Shown piece by piece: positions 1,626 to 47,100 of a DNA stretch of 64,000 bases. Origin of the DNA: Oncomelania hupensis (taxonomy: Eukaryota; Mollusca; Gastropoda; Littorinimorpha; Pomatiopsidae). Made by a program: the position numbers and the translations under genes. Each line of letters starts with the position of its first letter. The first letter of the stretch is position 1. Location: positions 66,143,983 to 66,207,982 of the forward strand of contig CM072521.1 of NCBI GenBank assembly GCA_036898135.1, written 5' to 3'. Below the pieces are notes generated by a model, which was not told where the DNA came from, made no database searches, and was given only the letters and a program-made list of their open reading frames with translations.

Positions 1626-3309
1626 GATGAGCTGTACATGGGTGTGGGAGAGTGGACAAGTGTATTCACGATAGAGGATGAGCTGTACATGGGTGTGGGA
1701 GAGTGGACAAGTGTATTCAGGATAGAGGATGAGCTGTACATGGGTGTGGGAGAGTGGACAAGTGTATTCAGGATAGAGGATGAGCTGTACATGGGTGTGG
1801 GAGAGTGGACAAGTGTATTCAGGATAGAGGATGAGCTGTACCAGGGTGTGGGAGAGTGGACAAGTGTATTCAGGATAGAGGATGAGCTGTACATGGGTGT
1901 GGGAGAGTGGACAAGTGTATTCAGGATAGAGGATGAGCTGTACATGGGTGTGGGAGAGTGGACAAGTGTATCCAGGATAGAGGATGAGCTGTACCAGGGT
2001 GTGGGAGAGTGGACAAGTGTATTCAGGATAGAGGATGAGCTGTACCAGGGTGTGGGAGAGTGGACAAGTGTATTCATGATAGAGGATGAGCTGTACATGG
2101 GTGTGGGAGAGTGGACAAGTGTATTCATGATAGAGGATGAGCTGTACCAGGGTGTGGGAGAGTGGACAAGTGTATTCAGGATAGAGGATGAGCTGTACCA
2201 GGGTGTGGGAGAGTGGACAAGTGTATTCAGGATAGAGGATGAGCTGTACCAGGGTGTGGGAGAGTGGACAAGTGTATTCAGGATAGAGGATGAGCTGTAC
2301 CAGGGTGTGGGAGAGTGGACAAGTGTATTCAGGATAGAGGATGAGCTGTACCAGGGTGTGGGAGAGTGGACAAGTGTATTCAGGATAGAGGATGAGCTGT
2401 ACCAGGGTGTGGGAGAGTGGACAAGTGTATTCAGGATAGAGGATGAGCTGTACCAGGGTGTGGGAGAGTGGACAAGTGTATTCAGGATAGAGGATGAGCT
2501 GTACCAGGGTGTGGGAGAGTGGACAAGTGTATTCAGGATAGAGATGAGCTGTACATGGGTGTGGGAGAGTGGACAAGTGTATTCAGGATAGAGGATGAGC
2601 TGTACATGGGTGTGGGAGAGTGGACAAGTGTATCCAGGATAGAGGATGAGCTGTACCAGGGTGTGGGAGAGTGGACAAGTGTATTCAGGATAGAGGATGA
2701 GCTGTACCAGGGTGTGGGAGAGTGGACAAGTGTATTCATGATAGAGGATGAGCTGTACATGGGTGTGGGAGAGTGGACAAGTGTATTCATGATAGAGGAT
2801 GAGCTGTACCAGGGTGTGGGAGAGTGGACAAGTGTATTCAGGATAGAGGATGAGCTGTACCAGGGTGTGGGAGAGTGGACAAGTGTATTCAGGATAGAGG
2901 ATGAGCTGTACCAGGGTGTGGGAGAGTGGACAAGTGTATTCAGGATAGAGGATGAGCTGTACCAGGGTGTGGGAGAGTGGACAAGTGTATTCAGGATAGA
3001 GGATGAGCTGTACCAGGGTGTGGGAGAGTGGACAAGTGTATTCAGGATAGAGGATGAGCTGTACCAGGGTGTGGGAGAGTGGACAAGTGTATTCAGGATA
3101 GAGGATGAGCTGTACCAGGGTGTGGGAGAGTGGACAAGTGTATTCAGGATAGAGGATGAGCTGTACCAGGGTGTGGGAGAGTGGACAAGTGTATTCAGGA
3201 TGGAGGATGAGCTGTACATGGGTGTGGGAGAGTGGACTAGTGTATTCACGATAGAGGATGAGCTGTACATGGGTGTGGGAGAGTGGACAAGTGTATTCAG
3301 GATAGAGGA
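1626..3309. repeat. 51 bp minisatellite, about 33 units
   Basis: Near-perfect tandem array with unit core GAGCTGTACCAGGGTGTGGG. Variant positions are ACATGG/ACCAGG and ATTCAGG/ATTCATG/ATCCAGG. Because 51 is divisible by three and the unit lacks stops, long ORFs appear on both strands with a 17-residue period; these are not genes. A single-base deletion near 2541 shifts the frame. The order of variant units repeats after 13 units, showing a later segmental duplication. It lies in the RPA1 intron upstream of the penultimate exon. Confidence 0.95.
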
Positions 3310-3445
3310 GGTTCTAATGGCAACATTCTCAATGGATTGGGATGGGACTGCATGCAAATAGACATTCTGACATGGACCTACTTTTTTTTTCTATCCCACC
3401 CTCCACCCCTATTCCCCTCTCCATCCCATTCCCCCTCCACTTCTC

Positions 3446-4618
3446 CAGCTCCCTCCATCTGGGGTGAATTGGGCAGCACTGTGGGGACACAAGTGGGATG
3501 TGTGGCAGCTCCCTCCATCTGGGGTGAGTTGGGCAACACTGTTGGGACAAGTGGGATGTGTGGCAGCTCCCTCCATCTGGGGTGAGTTGGGCAACACTGT
3601 TGGGACAAGTGGGATGTGTGGCAGCTCCCTCCATCTGGGGTGAGTTGGGCAACACTGTTGGGACAAGTGGGATGTGTGGCAGCTCCCTCCATCTGGGGTG
3701 AGTTGGGCAACACTGTTGGGACAAGTGGGATGTGTGGCAGCTCCCTCCATCTGGGGTGAATTGGGCAACACTGTTGGGGACACAAGTGGGATGTGTGGCA
3801 GCTCCCTCCATCTGGGGTGAGTTGGGCAACACTGTTGGGACAAGTGGGATGTGTGGCAGCTCCCTCCATCTGGGGTGAGTTGGGCAACACTGTTGGGACA
3901 AGTGGGATGTGTGGCAGCTCCCTCCATCTGGGGTGAGTTGGGCAACACTGTTGGGACAAGTGGGATGTGTGGCAGCTCCCTCCATCTGGGGTGAGTTGGG
4001 CAACACTGTTGGGACAAGTGGGATGTGTGGCAGCTCCCTCCATCTGGGGTGAGTTGGGCAACACTGTTGGGACAAGTGGGATGTGTGGCAGCTCCCTCCA
4101 TCTGGGGTGAGTTGGGCAACACTGTTGGGACAAGTGGGATGTGTGGCAGCTCCCTCCATCTGGGGTGAGTTGGGCAACACTGTTGGGACAAGTGGGATGT
4201 GTGGCAGCTCCCTCCATCTGGGGTGAGTTGGGCAACACTGTTGGGACAAGTGGGATGTGTGGCAGCTCCCTCCATCTGGGGTGAGTTGGGCAACACTGTT
4301 GGGACAAGTGGGATGTGTGGCAGCTCCCTCCATCTGGGGTGAGTTGGGCAACACTGTTGGGACAAGTGGGATGTGTGGCAGCTCCCTCCATCTGGGGTGA
4401 GTTGGGCAACACTGTTGGGACAAGTGGGATGTGTGGCAGCTCCCTCCATCTGGGGTGAGTTGGGCAACACTGTTGGGACAAGTGGGATGTGTGGCAGCTC
4501 CCTCCATCTGGGGTGAGTTGGGCAACACTGTTGGGACAAGTGGGATGTGTGGCAGCTCCCTCCATCTGGGGTGAATTGGGCAACACTGTTGGGGACACAA
4601 GTGGGATGTGTGGCAGCC
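3446..4618. repeat. 58 bp minisatellite, about 20 units
   Basis: Tandem array with core CTCCCTCCATCTGGGGTGAG. Most units are 58 bp; a few are longer (for example near 3755 and 4570, with GGGGACACAAG). The ORFs of 376 to 436 codons across it arise because no frame of the unit has a stop; they are not genes. It ends about 100 bp before the RPA1 penultimate exon. Confidence 0.95.
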
Positions 4619-4717
4619 CCCTAACGGTGACATTGTGCTGTGTCTTTACAGTGCTGTTATTGGTTGTATCAATGGCTGTAATATACAAAGTAATGATGAT
4701 GATGTGTGTGTGTGCAG

Positions 4718-25959: not shown

Positions 25960-26199
25960 TCACATATGCCTATAGCGAGGAAGACGATGGGGTGGGGTAG
26001 GAGAAAGAGAGGGGGAGTGCGCAGGAGAGCCGCCGACTTGCTGGCGTTGCAGGTTCTCAAAGCGACGTTTGAGGTTTTCGCGGAGCTCTAGGCGCTGTTG
26101 CTGCAGCAGACTTCGGTTTTGCTGGAACTGCAAGATGTCTTCCTGTGATATGCCGCACTCCCCATCATCGTCCTCTTCATTCTCGCATGACAAAGCATT
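25960..26199 (-). CDS. GGNBP2: GGNBP2 coding exon 12
   Basis: 240 bp including TGA. Acidic NEEDDDGECGISQEDILQFQ, then a coiled-coil-like LRENLKRRFENLQRQQ and a proline-rich tail. Acceptor GTGTGTTGCAG. Confidence 0.95.
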   Translation of the reverse strand, partial: NALSCENEEDDDGECGISQEDILQFQQNRSLLQQQRLELRENLKRRFENLQRQQVGGSPAHSPSLSPTPPHRLPRYRHM

Positions 26200-29100
26200 C
26201 TGCAACACACACATCACATCTACTTCACATATCCGTCAGGGATACATGGAGAAATAAACATCATAAAAACACTCCATTCTACCTGTATGGGACTGGGTCA
26301 CAATTTTTTCAAACTGGGAAAAACTTAGAAAATTTCAACACAATGCATATCTTAAAATATTTAGGATCCATTGTATCAGATAATGGGTCCCGACAGGAAG
26401 TCCTCTCCAGGATCACACAAACAACTGCTGCCCTGACAAGGTTGAAGCCCATTTGGAAAGACAGGACCATCAGTCAACATTCCAAGGTAAGACTGCTGCG
26501 CTCCCTTGCAGACCTGCCTACCTACAATTCTTTAAATCAGTAGCAAAAGGTCCAGTTTTCAGTAGCATGCACAACCGTCGATGTAGGACGCCACGACAAG
26601 TTAATTGTGTACTTAAAATATATATTTTAACATTGAAAACGTTTTGAGAAAGCACAAAATCAGTCTCTACCTGCCTCAGCACACATGATAAGAAATACAA
26701 TACTTGGTGTCGGGGTTTACTGTTTACTTTCGCAGAGAGTCAGCATAACAGCTCTTGAGTTTAACAAGGTCGTCTTTGGTCAGATGCCTGTTTAAAATGC
26801 CATCTGGCTGACTCTTCACCACCATCAGAGCCTCCATAGTGTCCTCTCCCAAGCTTGCTCTTTGGTCAGTTCTGTTCTTCCTCACACACGAGAAAACTCT
26901 TTCGCAGTGAGCACTTCAGTGTGGAATTGTGAGGATGGACACCACGTTTTAACAAAGGGAAATAGAAACGGAGCCATCTGATTGGTCACGCCCTGGTTGC
27001 ATCGTGTACGATGGACTTTAGAAATAGCAGAAGTTCTACTTTCTACGCACACAATTGGCTGGAGACAAACCCCAAACTAAAAAATAAAAATTAACCCTTT
27101 ACTGGGAACACGTTTGTCTATTTTTTAGCTCTAAACAGGCAAGAAGTCTTCTAATTGTAGCTATTTCGGAGTATGTTAGTAAAAACACCACATCTTAAAT
27201 ATTAGTGCATAGATTTAAATGAAATAAAATGCAAAATGAACAGAAATAAAACTCTTTTGATTATATACCTTTTTATTCTTCTCTTGTCATGTATTGTTAC
27301 AAAAATTGAAAAAAAATGTTTTAAAAAGTCCAAACAAGCCTCCTCCTCTTCTTCACTTCCCTGCCAATCTGAAAGATCTGATGCATGCATGCTACTGACA
27401 CTAATGTCGGTACCGATCTCTTCCTCCGACTCTAAGTCCATTTCTCTCACTTCAATGTCTAATAAATGGAAGCCTGTAAACTCTCCTTCATCAGTCCAAG
27501 AATCCAAACCATCCATTCTAGACACTTGCACACAAAAAAATGAAAAAAATCTGAAAAAACAAACGCATCAAAGAGAAAACTTGTGGAAATGCAGTCGATT
27601 GTTTTCACAACAGAATAAACCGGAAGTCAATTGCCGGAAGTCTCGCAATCTTTCAAACAACGCGAGAATATAACAGTGGTTGATACGGACGCTTTTGGGC
27701 GTTTTGCCTGTATAGACCTTCGGCCGCTATGCCCGGTAAAGGGTTAAAAAAAAAAGTCAGATTTTTGTTTCCCGTAGCAATTTTATGTTTGCCGTAGCAT
27801 TGTAGCAGAGCTTTATTTTTCGTAGCTGCTACGGCAAAATCGTAGCAGTAGGCAGGTCTGCCCTTGTCATCTCCCTATATGCTTGTGAAACATGGACCCT
27901 CACAGCAGATCTATAACGAAGAATACAAAGCATGGAGATGAGGTGCTACAGAAGACTTCTGGGCATTTCCTAGTATACCCAGCACATTCACCAAACAATG
28001 AAATCCGACAGACCATCACAAAAGCCATTGGACAACACAATGACATGCTCACAGGGGTGAACAAACAAAACTCAGATATTATGGCCATGTCACCAGAGCA
28101 TCATGCCTTGCAAAGACCATCCTGCCAGGCACAGTGCAAGAAGGCAGAAGAAGAGGGAAATAGAAAAAGAGGTGGGAGGATAACATTCAAGAATGGACTG
28201 GCTTGACACAGTGAAGCCATGAGGGTTGCTGAGGACAGAAAAAGATGGAGTACGCTGCTTAAACGATCATCGGTGGTGCCCCAACGACCTTTGAGTTACT
28301 GCATAGGATAGAATAGGATTTTAACTTTTTCTAAACCTTTGACAATGTAATAGGAATAAATACTCTCTATGGGCAATTTAGTTTTACTCCATTTAATTGA
28401 TATTTACAACAAATGAATAATTACTATACGTAACAGCAACACAACACAACCTCTATTCCAACATACACATCATGAGAACATTGGGACCTAATAACTGCAA
28501 TAATAATACATTCAATACACTAGGCATCAATGTGACTACTATTCAAATTGAAATCTGAACCCCCAAAGTATTGCACTTATGCCTTTCCAAAGTTGTACAG
28601 GTGAAAATGACGGTGACAAAATCTATCAGCAGAGGCTGTCTTACCGCAAACATTTCTTCCAGTGAGCCTAGAGATTTTGGAGTTGGACAGGCGTGCTGAT
28701 GATCATTTGCATAAGATTGAGGATGTCTGGAATTTATCTGAAACCCACCAACACATAGTATGTATAATAATAATAATAAAATAGCTTCCATGTCGCCTAA
28801 TATTTAAAACCTGAAGCTCAAACTCCTCTCACAAGTTAATTCATAGGCTTAGTATCAAAATAGAAACAAGTACACAAACAAATAAAACATTATTTATTAA
28901 TTTATTTATTGTTGTTATAAGTAACTAACAAAGTGAAATGCAATTAAGAAAGGTAAACAGGAATAATTAGGTACCTGATTTAGCGGAGCAAACTTTCTCT
29001 CTGGAGACCCTCCTACCGACTGACAATCTGAACATGTCAAGTCCCCTGCTTCCCCTGAAAATCAGTGACAACAACATAATCTGACATCAGTTCCATCATA

Positions 29101-32100
29101 AACACCATCCATCAATATTATTTTCATCATGATTGCTTCGCGAACTTCCAGAAAGTTAAGCTTCATAACAGACAGTGTACCGTTTTAAAAGGCCTGGGCT
29201 ATCACGGATGTCTGTTTATTTTTTGTGACAATGAGTTTAGTACTCTGGAAGTTCGGAGAAGCCATTTTGAACATGCTCATCCATTCAGAATTACTCAATT
29301 AGAATGCGCATGAGCACTAACTTGGATTAACTTCTACAGAGGTGGGGTATCACTCCTCAGCAAACTGGGACTGAAGGGTGGGGGGGGTGGGTGGGGGGGA
29401 ATGTGGTGTCTGTGTTCCGACTGACATGCAAAATCAGCGACATTCATTTTTATTTTTGAAGGGAAATTTGCTGACCGGAACAGACGAATAGAATCCATAC
29501 TTTCGGAACGCTTTAATTGATTAATTTCCCATAATAAGAACGGCTGTACCATAACTGTAGGTACGTCTGTTATATAAACAATCCACTTTGCCTACTACAG
29601 TGGAACCTCCGGTATCCGGCTCTCTGGTATACGACTCCCTCCGTTATGTGACCTGAAAACTTCTGACGGATTCACTTCCAATAATAAATGACCTCTGGTA
29701 TGCGACAACCTCGTTTATGCGACCAGCGACCGTGTCTTAAGCCCTTTATACGACCGTCTTAGGGCAATTTAAAAGAGATATCAGTTCATTTGCTGTCTGT
29801 ACCTTTCGTTTTTTCTCTCATGTTAGTGTACGCCTTCTGTTGTCTGCTATTTCCGGTTCGCAAATAAGGGACATTACTCGCCTACACTGGCTGTCAAAAT
29901 GGCGTCGCGCAAGAGGAACGTTTTGAGTTTGGCAGAGAGAATGAAAGTGATTGAAGGAAGTGAAAATGGGCAGAGTTGTTTGTCTATTGCAAGAAGTTTA
30001 GACGTTGGGAAGACCAAATTCAGCTCATCATAAAGGATAAGGAATCTGTGAAACTACGATTGGAGAGTGGAGAAAGTGGCGAAAAGGGAAACATCGAAAC
30101 TGAGAGCTTCTGCACAGACAGACTTGGATTAACGCGTCTGGCAGTGGTTCGACTGTTTTCTATTTTTGAAGTTGTGAATAAAAGACAAAGCTAAAAATGA
30201 AACATGTTTTACAGTTTCCTTTGTCAGAGAATACATGCTGGTGAGTGTGAAAATTATTACTACATACCCCTCCGAGCCTGACCCCCCTCCCCCCACCCCA
30301 CGTTTCCGGTATAAGACCACCCCTATTATAAGACCGTTTTTTCTCAGATTTTGGACGGTCGTATACCGGAGGTTCCACTGTATACACTCTCTGACTGTGG
30401 TGCTATAAATAGGCAGATAACCAAAACAACTGACCAATCCTTGTTTCAAATCAAACCCGTACTTTTGAAAGAGGTTATTTTTTGGGCTTGATGATTTTTT
30501 TTCTCCCATGTAGAGCAAACACTCATTGTGAATTTGAAAAGGATATGTGACACCGACAGGTGTAATGTCGGGGTCCTTTGACCCAGTACAGTCAACTACT
30601 ACTGTCCACAACGAAGATGTACAGCACTAATAATGATAACAATGGGCGAGGTAGCTGTGTTGTGGTTTGGACACAGGCTAGCAATGTTTCAGGTAATGCA
30701 CCCTCGGGAAGTGTTAGCACTTGGATGGGTGAGGTAGCTGTGTTGTGGTTTGGACACAGGCTAGCAATGTTTCAGGTAATGCACCCTCGGGAAGTGTTAG
30801 CACTTGGATGGGTGAGGTAGCTCTGTTGTGGTTTGGACACAGGCTAGCAATGTTTCAGGTAATGCACCCTCGGGAAGTGTTAGTACTTGGATGGGTGAGG
30901 TAGCTCTGTTGTGGTATGGACACAGGCTAGCAATGTTTCAGGTAATGCACCCTCGGGAAGTGTTAGCACTTGGATGGGTGAGGTAGCTGTGTTGTGGTTT
31001 GGACACAGGCTAGCAATGTTTCAGGTAATGCACCCTCGGGAAGTGTTAGTACTTGGATGGGTGAGGTAGCTGTGTTGTGGTTTGGACACAGGCTAGCAAT
31101 GTTTCAGGTAATGCACCCTCGGGAAGGGTTAGCACTTGGATGGGTGAGGTAGCTGTGTTGTGGTTTGGACACAAGCTATCAATGTTTCAGGTAATGCACC
31201 CTCCGCTCAAAAGGGGATACATGATGGACAGACAGATTGTAACCACAGCTAAGAGAAAGTGTAGAGACGGTAACATAACTAAGAGAGTGTTTAGAGACAG
31301 TGTCAAAGCTAAGAGAAAGTGTAGAGACAATACCACAGTTAAGAGAAAGTGAAGAGACAGTACCAAAGCTAAGAGAAAGTGTGTAGACGGCACCACGGCT
31401 AAGAAAAAGTGTAGAGCGTACCGTCATGCATACACAATCCATCAGAGCAGATGTCTGATCCATCGTTGGAGCTTGGAGAGCTGCAGTGGTCACAGCCATC
31501 CACCTCGCTGCCATAGCCACAGTCGCTGTTACGACATACACGACTCCCTTCTGACCCCCGGAACCCTTCTGACCCCTGAGGACACTGGCAGCCAGGGCTG
31601 GTTTCCTCTTCCTGGCAATGGTGGAGAGCGTCAGCAGGGTTGGAGTGATGGTGGTGGTGGTGATGGTGGTGGGGGTTGAGGAGGGAATGGTTACAGCCGG
31701 CTGCGGGGCTGTCGTTGTTGTTGTTGAGGGAGTGTGAGGGTGGAGAGGGGTTGACGTTGCTGTGGCTACAATGGGTGCTGTGGTTGTCGCACTGAGCAAG
31801 CTTGGACGTCTCAAGGGGCTTGGTGCCCACGATGGAGGTGGACGAACACTGCAACACAAAACACCGCCTTGTACACAGTCAGCCGACTAACAAAAATAGG
31901 TAGAACTAAAAATCACTTGGCCGAGCAAAGCGCCGACTCTTAAGGAAATTATAATAACATCTTTGTAACTAATTCTTTTGATGGAAATGGGAACAAAACA
32001 CTGTCCATTAGTATTAACTAATGTTGACTCCTGAAACTTCCAAATCTTACTACAATGTCAAAAAACATATCAGGTACGTCAAAAAATGTAGGACTGGGTT

Positions 32101-35100
32101 GAAACAACAGCAGGGTGAATTAACCAAATACTGTATATGGCCTTGCAATGACTACAAAGGTCCGTGCAGTGTCATTCATCCCCAAGGACTGGAAACGTTT
32201 CCAATTACCTCGCAATGGTTGGACATCTCCAGCTGGTTGTCAACCTCAGCCAGGTTCTCTCTCTCGCTCTTGGCCTGGGCCTTCCTGCGTTTCTTCTTCA
32301 GTCGCTTCATCTCCTTGCGCTGCTCCTTCATCCTTTCCTCCTCCTCTATCTCCTCACACATCCGCTCCAAGTTGCTCACGCCCTGCTTTGACTCCACCGC
32401 CATCTGTCACAACAGGTGCACAGATGATGTCTAACTTCATGCAGGGTGGAGAACAACTGAATCAAGAAATCTCTGAAATCCGGCCGGGGCCCAGGGGCCA
32501 AGCCCCGGTATTCGCCCCCGGGAAGAAAATGAATTTATGCAATTTTGAAAGTAATTTAGGGCCTCTCATGAAAGCAAAAAGCACAAAGTAAACATGAATA
32601 GAAACAACAACAACCCCAAAAAAGTGTTTTATGCACATGTCTTTCAAAAAAGTTAAGAATCTTGATTTGTAGGCCTAACAAAGTTTGAGGTCCACCACTG
32701 TTGCACACAAACTCCACATTTCCAATTTTACTGGGCACACGTTTGTCTATTTTTTAGCTGTAAACAGGCAAGAATTTTTATAATTTTAGAGATATTTAGG
32801 GGGTACGTTAGTAAAAACACTACATCTTAGGTATTAGTGACTAGTGTATAGATTTAAATGAAATAAAATGCTAAATGAACAGAAATACATTCTCTTTTGA
32901 TTATCTACCTTTTTATACTTTTCTTGTCATGTCTTGTTTTTTATTACTCCATGTGTACACAAAAAAAAAGTTTTAAAAAGTCCAAACAAGCCCCCTCCTC
33001 TTCTTCACTTTCATGCCAGTCTGAAAGATCGTATGCATGCACACTACTGACACTAATTGTCTAATGTCAGTACCGATCTCTTCCTCCGACTCCAAGTCCA
33101 TTTCTCTCACTTTAATGTCTGATAAATGGAAACCTGTAAACTCCCCTTCATCAGTCAAAGAATCCAAACCATCCATTTTAAACACACACACAAGAAAATT
33201 GGAAGAAAAAAAATTTGAAAAAAACGAACGCATCACAGAGAAAACTTGTGGAAATGCAGTCGAATGTTTTCACAACAGAATAAACCGTAAGTCAATTGCC
33301 GGAAGTCTCGCAATCTTTCAAACAACGCGAGAATATAACCACATGGTTGATACGGACGCTTTTGGACGTTTTGCCTGTTTAGACCTTCGGCCGCTTTTGG
33401 CCGCTATGCCCAGTAAAGGGTAGCCCTCAGCTTCTCACACTCGGAACTCAATATTTTTTTCGCGGAAATGCAAATGCCTTCCGCGGAAATCCGTGGATTC
33501 GCGGAAAATTCTCCACCCTGTTCATGGTCGGCACAGAGTACAAACGGCAATAAAATAAACCATACTACAGGTAATAACAGGCCCTGCTTTGACTCTACTG
33601 CCATCTGCCACAAGAGGTACACAGAGGATTTCTTACTTCATGGTCGGCACAGGAGGGACAGAGTACCAACGGCAATAAACTAAACTGAACTGCAGGTAAT
33701 AACAGCAGCCAACAGATAATGGCCTCATTTTGAGGACCGAAAGCAGTTACAATAACCTGGGCAATAATAGTAATAGTTTCTTAGTGCAACCAGCAGCATG
33801 TTACAACCAACAGGAGATTTCCAATTGATTGAGCTACCTTTATACATTTCACCTGAAGCATCAAACAAGTGTTCTCTTCTCTTCCCCCCCCCCCCCACCC
33901 CACCCCCTACCAAACAACAGAGCATGATGATAAAATAGCGTTACAAAAAAGTTGTAACCAAAACAGGACAAATGACAAAAACTGTTCATGCTTGCTTCAA
34001 AGTTTTTCTTGAGCGTCTCCACCCCGAGGGAGAAGAGCAGCTTGAAGGTCTGCTCCTCCTGCTTGAGGCGTTGGCCGATCTTGTGCAGACGGTCGTAGAT
34101 GTGGATGCCCAGACACGTCAGTACCTCTTCCTGAGCTATGTCCAGTGTCTTGGCATGCCGGTCACGACGATTCCTGAAAACACACACACACAATCCTGAA
34201 ATTGACTCACATCATTTTTCATAAATTCAGCCTACCATTCGTTACATAAATTTAACCTTTAATCTTCAGGGCTACTCCCAGCACTGGCCAAAGGCGAGTA
34301 AACATTGCGATGGGTGACATAAAGCTTAAAGCTCACTGGTCGGAAAGGCAACTTTGTTCTCTCTTATCCCTTCTCTCCATTATTTATAACAATACTTTTG
34401 TCCACCTTCACACAATTCAAGCCCTGCCTCTCTCATCTTGGGCATCTTCAGTTTCATTTTGTGCAAAGATTGTGAATGGACTAATGAACATTCAAGCAGA
34501 CTACTGGCTTTCGCTGAATCTCTGGTCTGGCGGGCAAGTCACTGAAAAGCAACCTCAATGTTATCCTATTGGGTGACAATTAACATCCCAAACTCCAAGT
34601 TAAAAAGCACTCGAACCATGACCTAGTTAACCCATTAACATGCGGAGCGACCTAGAGCGACCGAAATTTTGCTATGTGCACGCTCGCAGAACGACCGTCA
34701 GCGGCCGGTAATGACGTGGTCTGCTCAAAGGCTGCTATGTGGAAATCTATTTACAGCAAACGTGCGAGACTCCCGCGCACGTTATCATGATTTCCTGCGA
34801 TTTCTGGCAGAGTTTTCACTGCATTTTTAGAGTGTTTAGAATGCACACAGTGAATTTTCTATATTTGATTAAAGTTTGAAATTTGAGAGGCTGAGAATTA
34901 TGGCGTCAGATTCTTGCAGAATCTGATGAAGAAAATGACCCTTTTGAAGGATTTTAGGAGGCTGATTTGGTACAGGTTAATGATGGAGAGGAAATTGGTT
35001 TGGACTTTCACTTTGACGATCTGTTTCCTTCGAATTTGAATAACAGCAACGATGAACAATCGGTGCTATATTATTTGTGGCAGTGATCGTATTGCTGCAT

Positions 35101-38100
35101 GTTGAGCAGTATGCAATGTTGACATTCAGATTTGTTTTCCAGTTGCAACACACTGCAAAAATGTATGTGTAACATTTCATTTTGAAGAAAAATATGTGGT
35201 TGATTTATTAATAATGATGAGTGGAACATAATTTTGGGTGATGCATTTTTAATTAATTTTTGTATGTGCATGGCGTAGCATTTTGACGGAGTTACTTGCC
35301 TTGACCTAGGAAATAGAAGCACATAAGGCTTAGGCTCCTGTGGGGGTTAGAGGGTTAAGCATGAAAGATTACACTCACATCCCCGTGAGCTCCGGCTCGG
35401 CCATGCTGATGAGCATCTTAATGTATTCGCTGCAGTCCTTGTCGCCGAGTACCACAGCCTTGATGTGTCGTACACCGTCAACATTATTGAAGGCCTGCAG
35501 CTTGTCAAACAGTCGCTTGCAGTAGCCCTTCTCTTCCGCAGGGTGTTCCCCAATCAAAATGTTGTAGGCCAGCATCACCTTGGCGCGGCACTCCACGCAA
35601 AACCTGAGGAGAAAACAACATCACGGTTAGCTACAGAGTGTGTGAAGCCGTCCTTCTGCCTCCCAAGTCATCATTTGTACAATAGTGTTATTGGATAAAG
35701 TCCATGACAATAGTGTCATTGGATAAAGTCCACTTTGGCGCGGCACTCCACGCAAAACCTGAGGAGAAAACAACATCATGGTTAGCTACAGAGTGTGTGA
35801 AGCCGTCCTTCTGCCTCCCAAGTCATCATTTGTACAATAGTGTTATTGGATAAAGTCCATGACAATAGTGTTATTGGATAAAGTCCACTTTGGCGCGGCA
35901 CTCCACGCAAAACCTGAGGAGAAAACAACATCACGGTTAGCTACAGAGTGTGTGAAGCCGTCCTTCTGCCTCCAAGTCATCATTTGTACAATAGTGTTAT
36001 TGGATAAAGTCCATGACAATAGTGTTATTGGATAAAGTCCACTTTGGCGCGGCACTCCACGCAAAACCTGAGGAGAAAACAACATCACGGTTAGCTACAG
36101 AGTGTGTGAAGCCGTCCTTCTGCCTCCAAGTCATCATTTGTACAATAGTGTTATTGGATAAAGTCCACTTTGGCGCGGCACTCCACGCAAAACCTGAGGA
36201 GAAAACCACATCACGGTTAGCTACAGAGTGTGTGAAGCCGTCCTTCGGCCTCCAAGTCATCATTTGTACAATAGTGTTATTGGATAAAGTCCACTTTGGC
36301 GCGGCACTCCACGCAAAACCTGAGGAGAAAACCACATCACGGTTAGCTACAGAGTGTGTGAAGCCGTCCTTCTGCCTCCAAGTCATCATTTGTACAATAG
36401 TGTTATTGGATAAAGTCCACTTTGGCGCGGCACTCCACGCAAAACCTGAGGAGAAAACCACATCACGGTTAGCTACAGAGTGTGTGAAGCCGTCCTTCTG
36501 CCTCCAAGTCATCATTTGTACAATAGTGTTATTGGATAAAGTCCACTTTGGCGCGGCACTCCACGCAAAACCTGAGGAGAAAACCACATCACGGTTAGCT
36601 ACAGAGTGTGTGAAGCCGTCCTTCTGCCTCCAAGTCATCATTTGTACAATAGTGTTATTGGATAAAGTCCACTTTGGCGCGGCACTCCACGCAAAACCTG
36701 AGGAGAAAACCACATCACGGTTAGCTACAGAGTGTGTGAAGCCGTCCTTCTGCCTCCAAGTCATCATTTGTACAATAGTGTTATTGGATAAAGTCCACTT
36801 TGGCGCGGCACTCCACGCAAAACCTGAGGAGAAAACCACATCATGGTTAAGCTACAGAGTGTGTGACGCCGTCCTTCTGCCTCCAAGTCATCATTTGTAC
36901 ACTAGTGTTATTGGATAAAGTCCATGACAATAGTGTTATTGGATAAAGTCCACTTTGGCGCGGCACTCCACGCAAAACCTGAGGAGAAAACAACATCATG
37001 GTTAAGCTACAGAGTGTGTGACGCCGTCCTTCTGCCTCCAAGTCATCATGTGTACAATAGTGTTATTGGATAAAGTCCACTTTGGCGCGGCACTCCACGC
37101 AAAACCTGAGGAGAAAACAACATCATGGTTAAGCTACAGAGTGTGTGACGCCGTCCTTCTGCCTCCAAGTCATCATTTGTACAATAGTGTTATTGGATAA
37201 AGTCCACTTTGGCGCGGCACTCCACGCAAAACCTGAGGAGAAAACAACATCATGGTTAAGCTACAGAGTGTGTGACGCCATCCTTCTGCCTCCAAGTCAT
37301 CATTTGTACACTAGTGTTATTGGATAAAGTCCATGACAATAGTGTTATTGGATAAAGTCCACTTTGGCGCGGCACTCCACGCAAAACCTGAGGAGAAAAC
37401 AACATCATGGTTAAGCTACAGAGTGTGTGACGCCGTCCTTCTGCCTCCAAGTCATCATGTGTACACTAGTGTTATTGGATAAAGTCCACTTTGGCGCGGC
37501 ACTCCACGCAAAACCTGAGGAGAAAACAACATCATGGTTAGCTACAGAGTGTGTGAAGCCGTCCTTCTGCCTCCAAGTCATCATTTGTACAATAGTGTTA
37601 TTGGATAAAGTCCACTTTGGCGCGGCACTCCACGCAAAACCTGAGGAGAAAACAACATCATGGTTAGCTACAGAGTGTGTGAAGCCGTCCTTCTGCCTCC
37701 AAGTCATCATTTGTACAATAGTGTTATTGGATAAAGTCCACTTTGGCGCGGCACTCCACGCAAAACCTGAGGAGAAAACAACATCATGGTTAGCTACAGA
37801 GTGTGTGAAGCCGTCCTTCTGCCTCCAAGTCATCATTTGTACAATAGTGTTATTGGATAAAGTCCACTTTGGCGCGGCACTCCACGCAAAACCTGAGGAG
37901 AAAACAACATCATGGTTAGCTACAGAGTGTGTGAAGCCGTCCTTCTGCCTCCCAAGTCATCATTTGTACAATAGTGTTATTGGATAAAGTCCACTTTGGC
38001 GCGGCACTCCATGCAAAATCTGAGGAGAAAACAACATCACGGTTAAGCTACAGAGTGTGTGAAGCCGTCCTTCTGCCTCCAAGTCATCATTTGTACAATA

Positions 38101-41100
38101 GTGTTATTGGATAAAGTCCACTTTGGCGCGGCACTCCACGCAAAACCTGAGGAGAAAACAACATCATGGTTAGCTACAGAGTGTGTGAAGCCGTCCTTCT
38201 GCCTCCAAGTCATCATGTGTACAATAGTGTTATTGGATAAAGTCCACTTTGGCGCAGCACTCCACGCAAAACCTGAGGAGAAAACAACATCATGGTTAGC
38301 TACAGAGTGTGTGAAGCCGTCCTTCTGCCTCCAAGTCATCATGTGTACAATAGTGTTATTGGTTAAGTCCACTTTGGCGCGGCACTCCACGCAAAACCTG
38401 AGGAGAAAACAACATCATGGTTAAGCTACAGAGTGTGTGACGCCGTCCTTCTGCCTCCAAGTCATCATTTGTACACTAGTGTTATTGGATAAAGTCCATG
38501 ACAATAGTGTTATAGGATAAAGTCCACTTTGGCGCGGCACTCCACGCAAAACCTGAGGAGAAAACAACATCATGGTTAAGCTACAGAGTGTGTGACGCCG
38601 TCCTTCTGCCTCCCAAGTCATCATTTGTACAATAGTGTTATTGGATAAAGTCCATGACAATAGTGTTATTGGATAAAGTCCATGACAATAGTGTTATTGG
38701 ATAAAGTCCATGACAATAGTGTTATTGGATAAAGTCCATGACAATAGTGTTATTGGATAAAGTCCATGACAATAGTGTTATTGGATAAAGTCCATGACAA
38801 TAGTGTTATTTGATAAAGTCCATGACAATAGTGTTATTGGATAAAGTCCATGACAATAGTGTTATTGGATAAAGTCCATGACAATAGTGTTATTGGATAA
38901 AGTCCATGACAATAGTGTTATTGGATAAAGTCCATGACAATAGTGTTATTGGATAAAGTCCATGACAATAGTGTTATTGGATAAAGTCCATGACAATAGT
39001 GTTATTGGATAAAGTCCATGACAATAGTGTTATTGGATAAAGTCCATGACAGTAGTGTTATTGGATAAAGTCCATGACAGTAGTGTTATTGGATAAAGTC
39101 CATGACAGTAGTGTTATTGGATAAAGTCCATGACATTAGTGTTATTGGATAAAGTCCATGACAATAGTGTTATTGGATAAAGTCCATGACAGTAGTGTTA
39201 TTGGATAAAGTCCATGACAGTAGTGTTATTGGATAAAGTCCATGACAGTAGTGTTATTGGATAAAGTCCATGACAGTAGTGTTATTGGATAAAGTCCATG
39301 ACAGTAGTGTTATTGGATAAAGTCCATGACAGTAGTGTTATTGGATAAAGTCCATGACAATAGTGTTATTGGATAAAGTCCATGACAATAGTGTTATTGG
39401 ATAAAGTCCATGACAGTAGTGTTATTGGATAAAGTCCATGACAGTAGTGTTATTGGATAAAGTCCATGACAGTAGTGTTATTGGATAAAGTCCATGACAG
39501 TAGTGTTATTGGATAAAGTCCATGACAGTAGTGTTATTGGATAAAGTCCATGACAGTAGTGTTATTGGATAAAGTCCATGACAGTAGTGTTATTGGATAA
39601 AGTCCATGTAAAAGATAACAACAACACATTTCAAATTTCATCCTCTTCTTCCTGTGCTATATATCGTCAGTCATCTTTTTATTGGTGGGTGCAGGAATCG
39701 AGGATAAAAAAGGGGTCTCTTTTCTTTCCTCTTTCTTTCATTTTTTTCTATTTCTTCTTTTTCCCCTATCTCCTTTTTCCACATTTACTTATTCAAGAAA
39801 CTTTGATAGGTCACTGCATAGTTGCGGTTGTTGTATACATTTTTATTTATCAGATTAACATAAGTTGTACTGCTTTGATGTTGGCTAAACATATCAAAGC
39901 AAGAAAAAAAGCAATTTGATACCGAGTTATAACCGTTCTTTTAAATATATATTGATATATGACGACACATAAAAACTGACCAGTGATTTCAGCACAATAA
40001 AGCTGAGTAAGGCATGCACATTTTAACCTTTATGTACTTCATTTATTTTAAGGTATTTACTTTTGTGATTGTTTCTTTCAAGCGACTGTTAAAGCACGTT
40101 GCGGGAACCTCTCAAACGTATAAAGTACGTGAGATATTTATTAAAATGTACTGCCAACAGAAACTTCTCGTTACCTGTGCTTAGTGAGGTAGGATGACAG
40201 CGTCTCCTCAAACTTGGGACAGCTGATGTTCAGAACAGCAGCACGGCAATCTGCACTCATCTGAGCCCAGATGTCAGACCAAAGACTGCAAGGAAATAAA
40301 CCATGCAATCAAGGAAAAAAATTTTAATATTTAAAATAAACACCGATTGTTGTTCTGAACCAGTTCCCGATGACGCTTTTATGGAGGACTGCACTGGTAG
40401 CCTTGTCATACAGGCTTTTGATGACTTCTATAATTTTAGGGCTGATGTTGTACACTTTCATGGTTGCCCATAGAGCTGCATGCCAGACTCGGTCAAATGC
40501 CTTCTTGAAGTCTATGAACACATGATATAGATGTTGTTGGTGCTGTACGTATTTCTCACAGATTATTCTGAGGTTGAAAATCTGTTCAGTGGTACTTCGC
40601 CCTGCCATGAATCCTGCTTGTTCTTCAGCTATGATTTGTTCAGCTTGTGGTTTCAACCTGTTGAGTATTATTTTCAGGAGGACCTTGATGGGATGGCTGA
40701 TGAGGCTGATGGTGCGGTAATTTTCACACTCCTGAAGGTTACCTTTTTTGGGAAGAGTGATGACAAGCGACTGGGTCCATGGTTTAGGCCATTCCCCACT
40801 CTGCCATATCTTGTTACAGATAATGGTGAGAGCATCAGTCATCGCTTCTCCTCCTGCTTGTAGCAGTTCCGCTGGTATGTTGTCCACTCCCGCTGACTTC
40901 CCTTTCTTCAGCGATTGCACTGCTGCCTCAACTTCTTCCCGGAGAATTGGGAGGATTTCTTCTTCTTCTCTGCTCTCGGGACATGCTAGAACTGATGGGT
41001 CTCCATTTGGTGTATGGTTGTAAAGGTCAGAGCAGTACTCTGTCCATCTGTCCAAGACTTCTTGTTCTTCTGTAAGGCATATGCCAGACTTGCTTTGGAT

Positions 41101-44100
41101 AGTGGAGACTTTGGGCTGTTTAACACTTGTCAGCCGCTTCACAGTCTGGTAGGCCTTCTTGCTGTTGTTCTTGTTCAGATTGTTCTCTATTTCCTGGCAT
41201 TGATCTTCTATCCAGTTCTCCTTTACTGTGCGCATGCCTTTTCGGATGTCATTGTTGATTTTTCGGTAGACATCAGCTCCCTGTGAGGTGTTCTTTTTCT
41301 TTTTTAACTCTCTTCGTTTATCACACAGATCCAAAAGTTCAGGTGTGATCCACGGCTTCTTCTTTGGTCGGTGCTTGCCAAGGATCTCAGTGGCAGCATC
41401 TGTTACAGCTGAGTTGAAGGTATTGGTCATGGTGTTGACATCTACTTCGCCTGCCCCCAAAATAAGCAGTGGTGCAAATTTCCCCCCAATTGTGGCCTGA
41501 AATATTTTTGCCACCTCCGGGTCTTGCAGTTTGTCCAGGTCGAACTTCAGCCTGGTGCACTTTGCTGTATTTACTCTCTTCAAATGGACCCGGAAAGACA
41601 TCATCACGAGATCGTGGTCACTTCCAATGTCTGCTCCTGGAAAAGTGCGTGTCCTGCCAATGTTGATGCTTGATCTGAAGCGTTTCTTGACCATGACGTA
41701 GTCGATATGGTTGTGATGTTCCCCGCCGGGACTGAGCCATGTCCATCGTCTGGGTTTTTGTGGAGACCAAGCGTGTTTGCCAGTACCAGATTGTTGTATC
41801 TGGCAAACTCCAATAGCCTCAGACCCCTGTCATTTGTCTCGTTGTTGCAGTGGGGTCCACATATGTCTCCCCAGTTGTGAACAGTTGGGAACTGGTTCAG
41901 AACAACAATCGGTGTGCGTCAAGGATGCCTACTCTCTCCAACACTCTTCAACATCTTCCTAGAGTGCATCATGTCAGATGCTCTTGCAGATCACGAAGGC
42001 ACAGTCAGCATAGGGGGCAGAGCAATCTCCAATCTTCGTTTTGCGGATGATATTGATGGATTGGCTGGAGAGGAACAAGAACTTGAACAGCTTGTACAGA
42101 GGCTTGACATCACCTCCAGAGCTTATGGAATGGAAATAAGTGCAGAGAAGACCAAAATGATGACCAACAACACCAATGGCATCAACACGGACATCAAAGT
42201 ACAAGGCCAATCCCTCAACACAGTGCACAGCTTCAAATATTTAGGAGCCATTGTGTCAGACAATGGGTCTCGACAGGACGTCCTCTCCAGGATCGCACAA
42301 ACAACTGCTGCCCTGACAAGGTTGAAGCCCATTTGGAAAGACAGAACCATCAGTCTACATTCCAAAGTAAGACTGCTGCGCTCTCTGGTCATCTCCATCT
42401 TCCTATATGCTTGCGAAGCATGGACCCTCACAGCAGATCTCCAACGAAGAATACAAAGCATGGAGATGAGGTGCTACAGAAGACTTCTGTGCATTTCCTA
42501 TACCCAACACATCACCAACGACGAAGTCCGACAGACCATCACACAAGCCATTGGACAACACGATGACCTGCTCACAGTGGTGAAGAAACGGAAACTCCGA
42601 TGGTATGGCCACGTCACCAGATCATCAGGCCTTGCAAAGACCATTCTGCAAGGCACAGTGCAAGGAGGTAGAAGAAGGGTAAGACCGAAAAAGAGGTGGG
42701 AGGACAACATTCGAGAATGGACTGGTTTGACACTGAGCGAAGCCATGAGGGCTGCTGAGGACAGAGAAAGATGGAGTATGCTGGTTAAACGATCATCTGT
42801 GGTGCCCCTACGACCTTCGGGTTATGGGACAGGATAGGATAGGATATAGGAAAATAAACAAGCTGTAAGCAACAATAGAATATATTGTACATATACTTGA
42901 CCTGGAACAGAAATATTAGGAACGCCAAACAAAAGGTAGCGACCTCACATTATGTTGATAATCTAACTGCAAAGTAGAGGCATTAACATAAATGTGACAG
43001 TTTCATCAGCTAACAAAACCGAGAAATCTGGAAGCGGAGGAAGACATGAGGAAGGATGAAGAAAAAGTAGGAGGAGGAGAGAGAAGAAGAAGAAGAAGAA
43101 GAAAATTACCTTGGAGACTTGACCTTGTGCGTGTCGAGTGAATGAAGATTGCATCGCTTCTTGCTTTTGCCTTTTCCCACTGTCTCTATGACAGCGCTTT
43201 GCCGCGGCCTGCAACACGTTTCAATGTTGACATTTGAAATCGCCTTTTTATATTATTATCTTCCACCATCATAGTCAAAACATTCATGATTTAACCCTTT
43301 TTCAAGCAGACCACCCTCACATTGCCTAATGAGAAAAAGGCAGCTCAAGAGAAACAACTCCGCATAGTTCATCACACCCCTACATACACCAACATTTTTT
43401 TAAAATCTAAAACAAATACTGAACTGAAATCAATTTTATTAAATTCAAGATGAATTTTTCTTTCAAGGGATGCTCTTCCATATAAATCCATTAAAAAAAT
43501 CCAAACATTACAAAAACACAAACACAGTGGCAGACACAGTATTATTGACTAGAAATCAATGTGTCCACAGCTTATCCTATCCTATAACTCGAAAGTCATT
43601 GGGGCACCACAGATGATCGTTTAACCAGTGTACTCCATCTTTCTCAGTCCTCAGCAACCCCCATGGCTTCGTTCAGTGTCAAGCCAGTACATTTTCGAAT
43701 GTTGTCCTCCCACATCTTTTTCTCTCCCCTCTTCTTCCACCTCCTTGCACTGTGCTCTGAAGGATGGTCTTTGCAAAGCTTGAGGCTCTGTTGACGTGGC
43801 CATACTATCAGAGTTTCTGTTTCTTCACCACCGTGAGCATGTCATTGTGTTGTCCAATAGCTTGTGTGATGGTCTATCGGATTTCATCGTTGGTGATGTG
43901 CTGGGTATAGAAAATGCCCAGAAGTCTTCTGTAACACCTCATTTTCATGCTTTGTATTCTTCGTTGTCTGCTGTGAGGGTCCATGTTTCGCAAGCGAATA
44001 GGAAGATGTAGATGAAAATGGAGCGCAGAAACCATACCTTGGAGTGTAGACTGATGGTCCTGTCTTTCCAAATGGGCTAAAACTTTGTCAAGGCAGCAGT

Positions 44101-47100
44101 TGTTTGTGCGGTCAGGGAAAGGACTTCCTATTATAGGGACTCATTGTCTGATACAACAGCTCCTAAATATTTGAAGCTATGCAACGTTTTGAGGGTTTGG
44201 TCTTGGACTTGGATGTCCGTTTGGATGCCCTTGGTGTTGTTGGTCATCATTTTGGTCTTCTCTGCACTTATTTCTATTCCAAGGGCTCTGGAGGTGGTGT
44301 CAAGCCTCTGTACCAGCTGTTCAAGTTCTTGTTCCTCTCCAACCAATCCATCAAAGTCATCCACAAAACTGAGGTTGGAGATTGCTCTCCCCTCTATGTT
44401 GATGATGCCTTCGTGATCTGCAAGGGCATCAGACATGATGCGCTGCAAGAAGATGAAGAGTGTTAGAGAGAGTAGACACCCTTGACCCATGCCGATTCTG
44501 AACCAGTTCCCAATGGCACTGTTGTGAAGGACTGCATCACATCACAATCACTCTCTAAAGCTTCGAAATCAATATCTAAGTCACTTTCCTTGCTTGGATA
44601 AATTTGCACAAGATTGCCTTCATCAAATCCCACAAAAGCACATAATGGCTGCTTCCATAATCTCCTCTAATCTATTTATAGATGAAGCAGTGTAAAAGGC
44701 CTAACGGAGCATGTGTTTGGGGCATTTTGCCGGCGGACATCGGGCAACATGCTCAGACTTGACAGAAAAAGGGTTAATATACACAACTAGGCGATTCAAG
44801 TAGGTACAGGCAGGTCAAAATTAAATTTCAGGGGAAGTTAATTAAAATGATAAAATTATGAAAGAGGGCAAAAATACAAACACAAAAAACAAAACAGTTT
44901 CTTTCTATCTCTACTAGAACCAGAGATACAGACCTTTAAATACGGTACATATTCAGCCGTTTTTGGCCGTTTTTGTCAAATTTCACGACAAGCTGATTTT
45001 GAGAAGCTGTAAGAAGCCACTATTGCCATAAAACATGTTCAAATTAATACAATTTGTTGCATTGTTTATGTACATTAACCCTATTTTTTTTGAGGCTATC
45101 AAACCCATAAGCCTGACCACTGGTATGACCTAAAAGTTGCAGTTTCTGCAAATTTCAGCCGCGGCCGTAAGAGCAATTATATGTGTAAGCTTCAAATAGC
45201 TGTAGAATGTAACATTATTGTTCGATTTTCAAACTTCAAAGTGTTCTGTGTGTGTTTTTTATAGACTTTTAAAATGAAATGCAGCATGACAACATTCCTA
45301 TATATATTAGGAAATAAATTTGCCCTCCTCCCCCCCCCTTACCCCCACACACACAATATTATTTGCAAATGACACCTTTCCAACCTTGACTGGTTTATTC
45401 AGCAAGTTTTACTTTAGGCAACAAAGTACAGGAGCTTCTTTGCATTAGTTTCTAGCACTAGATCCGTAGGGTAGGCGCCTTACAAATGCTAATTATTATT
45501 ATTATTATTATTATTGCCATATTGGCAGTTTTGAAGATCATATTATTCATATGGGCCTTTTTCTTGGCTGTGTACATTTATAATAACACGACTAACATTT
45601 CTAAATGCATTATTTTGGGGTAAGAAGAGTAAAATGTAAACTTCACTTTTGCTGATTTGCATTCAGTGTAATAACATTTTCACAGTCTGTAATAGGGGTT
45701 TCCCACAGCGCTGTACTGCAGATGACCTCCCTTGGTGATTTGTTTATGAAACTTTTGCAACAGATATCTTATTAAAAGTTGAACATCCAGCGCTACAATT
45801 AAATCAGCAGTTGCCTGAACTACTTATTGACAAATTTGAAATGTTATGGTCCTTGTATTTATTGATTAAAACACATAGTGAACTTTTTCATCGGGCACGT
45901 CAATGCCTTGTTTCCATTTTCTCAACAGGTCAAAGGCAAGAGTGCCTCAGCGCCTTGATTGTGAAAAATACTAAATTTTAAGAGCAATTATTGCTATCAC
46001 AGTTTATATATATCCTTCTAACAACATTTACAGCAAAAATACATCGAAGTATGTTTGATTTTCTACCAAAAATCGAGTCTAATCTGACTCCAAAGGTCCC
46101 AGGTCGACTCGATCATGTTAGCTGCCATTTTGACACAGACTTAGAAGAACAACCAATGGCTGTGCTCGTTTCATTCAAAAGCTACGAGGCCCTGCTGAGG
46201 TTACAAGGATATCGTGTAGACCATTAGAAAGAGCGAAAATCAACGTTTTCAAAAAGTATATGCTTTGTATGCTTATTTGTGCGCTTTTTGGTAGAAAACG
46301 ACTCCTAAAATTTGTTTTTTGTGATTTAGACTCTTTTTTTTTTTAAATTACAGGCAAAATTAGTATCAGTTTGAAGGGAATTATCTGCACTCTCTTTCTG
46401 TGCTATTTTTAGCTGTGTACATTGAATGGGGAGACGTAGCCAGCGCAAGGAACACACCGTGTGTTTTTTGTATCACTCGGCAAGCCATGCTCACAGCAAG
46501 AAATAACCATCCAGAGCCTTTTTTTAAAAAATTGTCAAAAATCACTCATTCAACATACAGCAAACATAAATACACCATTGGAAAGGGTAAAACTTCAACT
46601 TCTTTTGCAGTACAAATAATGTGGTAGTGCATGCACAAATTGTGTCATAACATTCGTGGGAATGCAACTGAAAAACAGCTGCTGAAGCGTTAGTCTTACA
46701 GTTCAAGACATAGCCTGCCGATACCTAATTCAAGCTAACGTTCACATCACAAAAGGAAAATACAATTCTAGCAGCCCACTAAATACAAACAGATATAATT
46801 ACAAAACAGTATACAAACACACACACACAAACTTTTTATATTCTCACAATACTGCGCTGCTCAGATTTGCAAAAACAGACTTATAAAACCTAGGCCTACA
46901 GCGGCGAGCAACAAACGATGCCCTAAATACGCATGGCACAAGACTTTGAAACCTACACCAAGCACACACACAATGTCATCCCCACTGTGCCACAAATAAC
47001 AAAACTGAAGCTGACAAAGAAAGAAAAGCAAGCAAAATAAGGTCTTACCCATGAACGTAGAAGAGACAGAAGAGAGTGCGCGTGTCGTGAACATCTGCTA

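What the first reader, a model, noticed from the sequence alone, without database searches (positions are those of the whole stretch)
35577..38650. Array of about 22 decoy 3' splice sites upstream of GGNBP2 exon 6
Every ~126 bp unit copies the pyrimidine tract, the AG and the first 27 bases of exon 6 (FCVECRAKV). In transcription order the decoys come before the true acceptor at 35603. From the exon 5 phase each decoy reads FCVECRAKVDFIQ and then TAA, so use of any decoy without a further splice truncates the protein. Nearly identical acceptors give no local reason to prefer the last one, so splicing here must use exon context, distance or coupling to transcription, or tolerate large losses to nonsense-mediated decay. 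Array length could then tune GGNBP2 level.
Basis: partly seen in the sequence, partly recalled or inferred. Interest (0 to 1): 0.87.

Follow-up and report, generated by a model that had tools for sequence, protein, structure and literature searches.

The report
Snail gene minisatellite copies splice acceptor
In a snail-like genome a repeat has copied one gene's splice-acceptor site 22 times in front of the real one; the same kind of repeat is already known from lancelets, where it is reported to leave splicing intact, so this is most likely harmless repeat growth, but it is a large natural test of how cells pick the right splice site.

Summary
On the minus strand, intron 5 of a real GGNBP2 gene carries exactly 22 tandem copies of the exon 6 acceptor before the true acceptor at 35603. 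Nine aligned orthologues have no insert at this junction. The array was found at one place in the genome, is built from a neighbouring 28-bp minisatellite, and shows block-wise homogenisation. Variation falls evenly over exon copy, filler and splice signals. There is a cue for the last acceptor: no GT in the array scores like a donor, while the true exon ends in a good donor after 225 nt. A cryptic donor at +25 of exon 6 weakens this argument. The window is rich in such repeats (16.3% against 2.3% of a 200-kb sample), so about two of 20 exon borders would lie in an array by chance. Such arrays are known as 'mirages' in amphioxus genes and are reported not to disturb splicing. I call this a new member of that kind, with more copies than the globin example and in a caenogastropod-like genome. 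No RNA was available; the splicing outcome is inferred.

The parts
35379..35603 (-). GGNBP2 exon 6 (225 nt) with the true acceptor at 35603 and donor GAT|GTGAGT
35604..38628 (-). 126/155-bp array: 22 decoy acceptors (38552...35758), each with GCTAAC or GCTTAAC, a pyrimidine tract ending in AG, and a copy of the first ~27 bases of exon 6
38629..39608 (-). 28-bp minisatellite, 35 copies, 99% matches; 26 bases of it are built into the 126-bp unit, and six units carry a further 28-mer
40175..40285 (-). GGNBP2 exon 5, donor CAG|GTAACG, start of the 4,571-nt intron 5
31422..31848 (-). GGNBP2 exon 9; its donor (first intron base 31421) lies next to a second, 30-bp array
31242..31416 (-). 30-bp array (about 6 degenerate units) starting 6 nt inside intron 9, a donor-side neighbour
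25962..49755 (-). GGNBP2 gene as modelled, at least 11 coding exons (ATG at 49755)

Best explanation
The array is a boundary-spanning minisatellite of the kind called a 'mirage' in amphioxus. Shown by the sequence: each unit joins exon 6 base ~27 to a piece of the upstream 28-bp minisatellite (the two parents share only TG at the joint), and 22 copies are homogenised in local blocks. Inferred: it arose by tandem duplication and grew neutrally. Inferred: the last acceptor is used mainly because exon 6 is recognised as a whole (exon definition). The true acceptor has the coding exon and a strong donor 225 nt away; to that donor the decoys are 380 to 3,174 nt away, and no decoy has a donor-like site inside the array. 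Stray use of decoys would make truncated reading frames that nonsense-mediated decay should remove.
For: Structure and copy number; one place in the assembly. Variable sites per alignment columns: 3/26 exon copy, 3/26 28-mer, 5/49 filler, 3/27 branch-tract-AG, chi-square p 0.998. Neighbouring units differ by 3.45 on average against 6.24 in shuffled order, 0 of 10,000 shuffles as low. The 155-bp form stands at both array ends (u1, u20-u22; also u10 and u13 inside), comparable to the end units left out of homogenisation in the amphioxus globin case. Donor scores: best in the array -2.73, ten modelled donors 1.72-3.86. PMC9225289 (abstract and section 9 read): pairs closest across the exon are favoured under exon definition. 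PMC3087553 (abstract, section 16, passages) and PMC3902484 (one passage): mirages leave splicing regular. Base rate: arrays cover 16.3% of the window, 9.7% without the two at this gene, 2.3% of 200 kb sampled elsewhere; expected 2.1 of 20 exon borders in arrays (3.3 with those two counted), observed 1 inside and 1 within 6 nt.
Against: No RNA was seen. The cryptic donor AAG|GTGATG at +25 of exon 6 (score 2.98) lies 180 and 335 nt from the two nearest decoys, so a normal-sized decoy exon could be defined there. In PMC9225289 exon definition is said to reduce the upstream 3' site preference, not to reverse it. Decoys are transcribed 155 to 2,949 nt before the true site, which favours them kinetically. 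The donor matrix is recalled and human-like, not made from this species. Evenness rests on 14 variable sites in a homogenising array. At least 10 of 22 decoys have a branch site, and 16 of 22 a tract, predicted as open as the true one. The base-rate estimate assumes 11 exons and random placement.
Confidence: 0.65

Rival explanations
1. Dosage tuner: decoys are used often, their transcripts are destroyed by nonsense-mediated decay, and array length sets GGNBP2 level.
For: 22 of 22 decoys truncate in the exon 5 frame; a cryptic donor at exon 6 +25 could define decoy exons of 180 or 335 nt; an intronic repeat whose length correlates with exon skipping and lower expression is known in human ABCA7 (abstract only, PMC5954066); transcription order favours decoys.
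Against: No donor-like GT in the array itself; no constraint seen on any segment; mirages in amphioxus reported not to disturb splicing.
Confidence: 0.13
2. Recursive or dual-specific splicing: a unit begins with GT and ends with AG, so a wrong choice of decoy is corrected by further splicing until the true exon is reached.
For: AG|GT in 21 of 22 decoys and at the true site, with a branch-like site in each copy; dual-specific AGGT sites in tandem repeats are documented and tend to be weak (PMC10809524: abstract, section 4 part 1 of 2, section 7); a duplication across an intron-exon border made a new intron in a potato gene (abstract, PMC4974935).
Against: CAG|GTTTTG scores -3.74, reached by 32% of all GTs on this strand and below the ten modelled donors; the copy at 38019 lacks GT.
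Confidence: 0.08
3. Assembly error: a short real array inflated, or a mis-joined repeat.
For: Tandem arrays are a known source of assembly errors (title and start of abstract of PMC6868369 in the listing); no reads available here.
Against: Units differ by block-structured variants and two lengths; the contig is 69.3 Mb and a 4-kb array is within reach of accurate long reads (inference; the read type is not known); the flanking 20 kb is similarly array-rich.
Confidence: 0.06
4. Local RNA structure hides the decoys: the +25 G to A change in the decoys helps close the decoy AG|GT into a helix and leaves the true one open.
For: AG|GT openness 0.387 at the true site against mean 0.194 in decoys, 1 of 22 decoys as high, and the same 1 of 22 with a second window setting; isolated 50-base folds agree.
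Against: Differences are modest and predicted only; branch site and tract show no advantage of the true site; the two 50-base folds have nearly equal energy, -12.2 and -12.3.
Confidence: 0.06

Closest known systems
Amphioxus 'mirages' (globin BflGb6/BflGb9, Adh3, TnC, PGBD5)
   Same: Minisatellite-like tandem copies spanning an exon-intron border; BflGb6 copies the 3' end of an intron plus the 5' part of the next exon in 150-160 bp units, AG/GT signals in many but not all copies, homogenised inside and not at the ends.
   Different: Here 22 copies (BflGb6: 6 and 3 in two haplotypes); the genome is caenogastropod-like, not a lancelet; the unit contains a neighbouring 28-bp minisatellite; no RNA or second haplotype tested.
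Tandem arrays of dual-specific AGGT splice sites (human UBC)
   Same: Tandem repeat with AGGT at each unit border, so a unit is GT...AG.
   Different: UBC units are coding and in frame; here the units carry stops in the exon 5 frame, and the GT side scores as a poor donor.
Intron gain by tandem duplication across an intron-exon border (potato RdRp)
   Same: Duplication crossing the border of an intron and the next exon, with branch site, tract and AG inherited (abstract).
   Different: There the copied exon piece supplied a working donor; here the comparable AAG|GTGATG at +25 of exon 6 (2.98) reads AAAGTGGAC (-2.73) in 22 of 22 decoys.
ABCA7 intronic VNTR
   Same: Intronic repeat whose length is related to splicing and expression (abstract).
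   Different: The abstract describes no copied acceptor; its function rests on population data that are missing here.

Membership tests
mirage (amphioxus-type boundary minisatellite) | tandem repeat whose units span an exon-intron border of a gene | tested here: met
mirage (amphioxus-type boundary minisatellite) | splice signals (AG/GT) copied in many units | tested here: met
   AG 22 of 22, AG|GT 21 of 22
mirage (amphioxus-type boundary minisatellite) | concerted evolution inside, end units distinct | tested here: met
   the 155-bp form is at both ends but also at two inner units
mirage (amphioxus-type boundary minisatellite) | regular splicing undisturbed | not testable with these tools
   no RNA held
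mirage (amphioxus-type boundary minisatellite) | length instability between haplotypes or cells | not testable with these tools
   one place in one assembly
mirage (amphioxus-type boundary minisatellite) | occurs in a lancelet (host of the cases found in print here) | tested here: not met
   best named orthologues Babylonia, Batillaria, Pomacea (59, 54, 53% identity) are Caenogastropoda; Branchiostoma listed at 43%. I treat host as description, not as definition
recursive / dual-specific splice site | AG directly followed by a competent donor | tested here: not met
   GT present in 21 of 22, but CAG|GTTTTG scores -3.74; recalled matrix
recursive / dual-specific splice site | observed use as both acceptor and donor | not testable with these tools
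   no RNA held

The most novel reading that the evidence does not exclude
The AG|GT copies act as a ladder of zero-length recursive sites: the spliceosome may enter at nearly any decoy and step down to the true exon, so a disruptive repeat is self-correcting and the time to remove intron 5 scales with unit number.
Probability: 0.07. Interest if true: 0.75.

Novelty: new member of a known kind. Interest (0 to 1): 0.4.

Why it matters
It is a natural experiment with 22 near-identical acceptors in transcription order before one true site, so one RNA data set would measure how strongly exon definition beats first-come-first-served splicing. It also suggests that border-spanning minisatellites, which the papers found here describe only in lancelets, occur in other repeat-rich genomes and could confuse gene annotation.

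Tried and rejected
Looked for constraint or decay of the copied splice signals: none seen, low power. Considered a coding role for the long open frames across the array: they arise because many units are 126 bp (42 codons), are out of the exon 6 frame and stop at units of other length. Rfam: 0 matches at gathering score in the window. Pfam: 0 families for the 522-residue protein at E <= 0.01; gene identity rests on the orthologue search (752 proteins with E <= 0.001 among the 8,000 candidates scored, 120 listed). Naming the species through cytochrome oxidase did not complete. Literature seen but not read beyond a listing: among others PMC2812944, PMC3862624, PMC6868369; opened but not used: PMC8605326 (outline and short abstract), PMC8724738 (one passage).

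Full report
What is there. The window's minus strand carries GGNBP2 (gametogenetin-binding protein 2). I modelled coding exons at 49755-49675, 48233-48043, 47189-47049, 43208-43110, 40285-40175, 35603-35379, 34173-33996, 32403-32209, 31848-31422, 29054-28975 and 26199-25962. Exons 2-9 join to a 522-residue open frame. A further exon between the last two is possible, because orthologues have residues there that I did not locate. The protein search scored 8,000 candidates and found 752 with E <= 0.001 (120 listed); the best hit is unnamed (68% identity over 79%), the best named are Babylonia, Batillaria and Pomacea at 59, 54 and 53%, and Branchiostoma lanceolatum is listed at 43%. The first three are Caenogastropoda. 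In an alignment with nine of these orthologues none has an insert between KHR (exon 5 end) and FC (exon 6 start). So 35603 is the acceptor that yields the protein.

The array. Intron 5 is 4,571 nt. It holds a 28-bp minisatellite (38629-39608, 35 copies) and then 22 decoy acceptors from 38552 to 35758, followed by the true one. The 126-bp unit consists of the copied exon start, 26 bases of the 28-mer, about 48 bases of filler, and the branch-like site, tract and AG; six of 22 units carry a further 28-mer. Of 23 copies 15 have GCTAAC and 8 GCTTAAC; calling these branch sites is recalled consensus. At the joint, exon sequence up to CCAA[A/G]G meets the 28-mer at TGGAC; both parents share only TG there (sequence reading). 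A DNA search of the 1.45-Gb assembly found this unit only here, 26 matches; the tool warns that it skips very common words.

History. Nearby units resemble each other more than shuffled ones (3.45 against 6.24 differences over -77..+24, 0 of 10,000 shuffles as low), the mark of unequal exchange or slippage in blocks. The longer form stands at both array ends and at two inner units. Fourteen sites vary among the 22 units (leaving out the extra 28-mer and its two internal variants): 3 of 26 columns in the exon copy, 3 of 26 in the 28-mer, 5 of 49 in the filler, 3 of 27 in the splice signals. Neither constraint nor decay of the signals is visible; power is low.

Is there a reason to choose the last acceptor? 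On the donor side, yes, with a reservation. With a recalled human-like matrix, the ten modelled donors score 1.72-3.86 (one is a GC donor, 2.89); no GT of the array exceeds -2.73; the exon 6 donor scores 3.85. From the true acceptor it lies 225 nt away, from decoys 380 to 3,174 nt. PMC9225289 (abstract and section 9 read) reports that sites closest across the exon are preferred when introns are long, though for 3' sites the upstream preference is described as reduced. The reservation: exon 6 itself has a donor-like AAG|GTGATG at +25 (2.98), 180 and 335 nt from the two nearest decoys, so those decoys are not without a possible partner. In the decoys the same place reads AAAGTGGAC (-2.73), so the decoys lack a donor of their own; this may be why the array is tolerated (inference). 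Predicted openness of AG|GT is higher at the true site than in 21 of 22 decoys, but branch site and tract show no advantage.

Chance. Arrays of period >= 20 and length >= 150 cover 16.3% of the window (12 arrays) and 2.3% of 20 stretches of 10 kb elsewhere (11 arrays). The two flanking 10-kb stretches are also rich (four arrays after merging, 3,026 of 20,000 bases, added by hand). The window lies 3.1 Mb from the end of a 69.3-Mb contig. Without the two arrays at the gene about 2.1 of 20 exon borders would fall in arrays at random, with them 3.3; observed are one inside and one close by (exon 9 donor, first intron base 31421, array end 31416). This assumes 11 exons and random placement.

Known or new. 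[quoted passage not shown] PMC3902484 (one passage) adds PGBD5 and says that Adh and TnC mirages do not generate aberrant mRNAs. The naming paper (Nucleic Acids Research 2002) is not held. Five of the ten literature searches aimed at such arrays. They listed the lancelet papers and nothing that I recognised as a mollusc case from titles and abstract starts; two searches showed 20 of 158 and 15 of 201 papers, so this does not prove that none is in print. A related single duplication across an intron-exon border that made a new intron is described for a potato gene (abstract of PMC4974935).

Verdict. A real and striking but understandable structure: a mirage-type array with 22 copied acceptors in a caenogastropod-like GGNBP2 gene, most likely neutral, with exon definition as the main guard. 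Tuning and recursive use remain open until RNA is examined.

Noticed in passing
window 31242-31424, minus strand: A second array (30-bp, about 6 degenerate units with TTTCTCTTAG) begins 6 nt inside intron 9, next to the exon 9 donor; a degenerate first unit may include the donor.
   Followed up: partly
window 33996, minus strand: Intron 7 appears to be a GC-AG intron (GAA|GCAAGC ... CAG), supported by reading frame and homology.
   Followed up: partly
window around 35578, minus strand: Cryptic donor AAG|GTGATG at +25 of exon 6 (score 2.98), replaced by AAAGTGGAC in 22 of 22 decoys.
   Followed up: partly
window 1626-4622: Two large minisatellites (51 bp x 33 and 58 bp x 20) with long open frames, on both strands for the 51-bp array.
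   Followed up: no
window 40324-41829 (-) and 41881-42837 (+): Reverse-transcriptase-like retroelement pieces in intron 4, one ending close to the exon 5 acceptor (label by eye, not searched).
   Followed up: no
window as a whole and L029, L030: Minisatellite cover about seven times that of the sampled genome stretches.
   Followed up: partly
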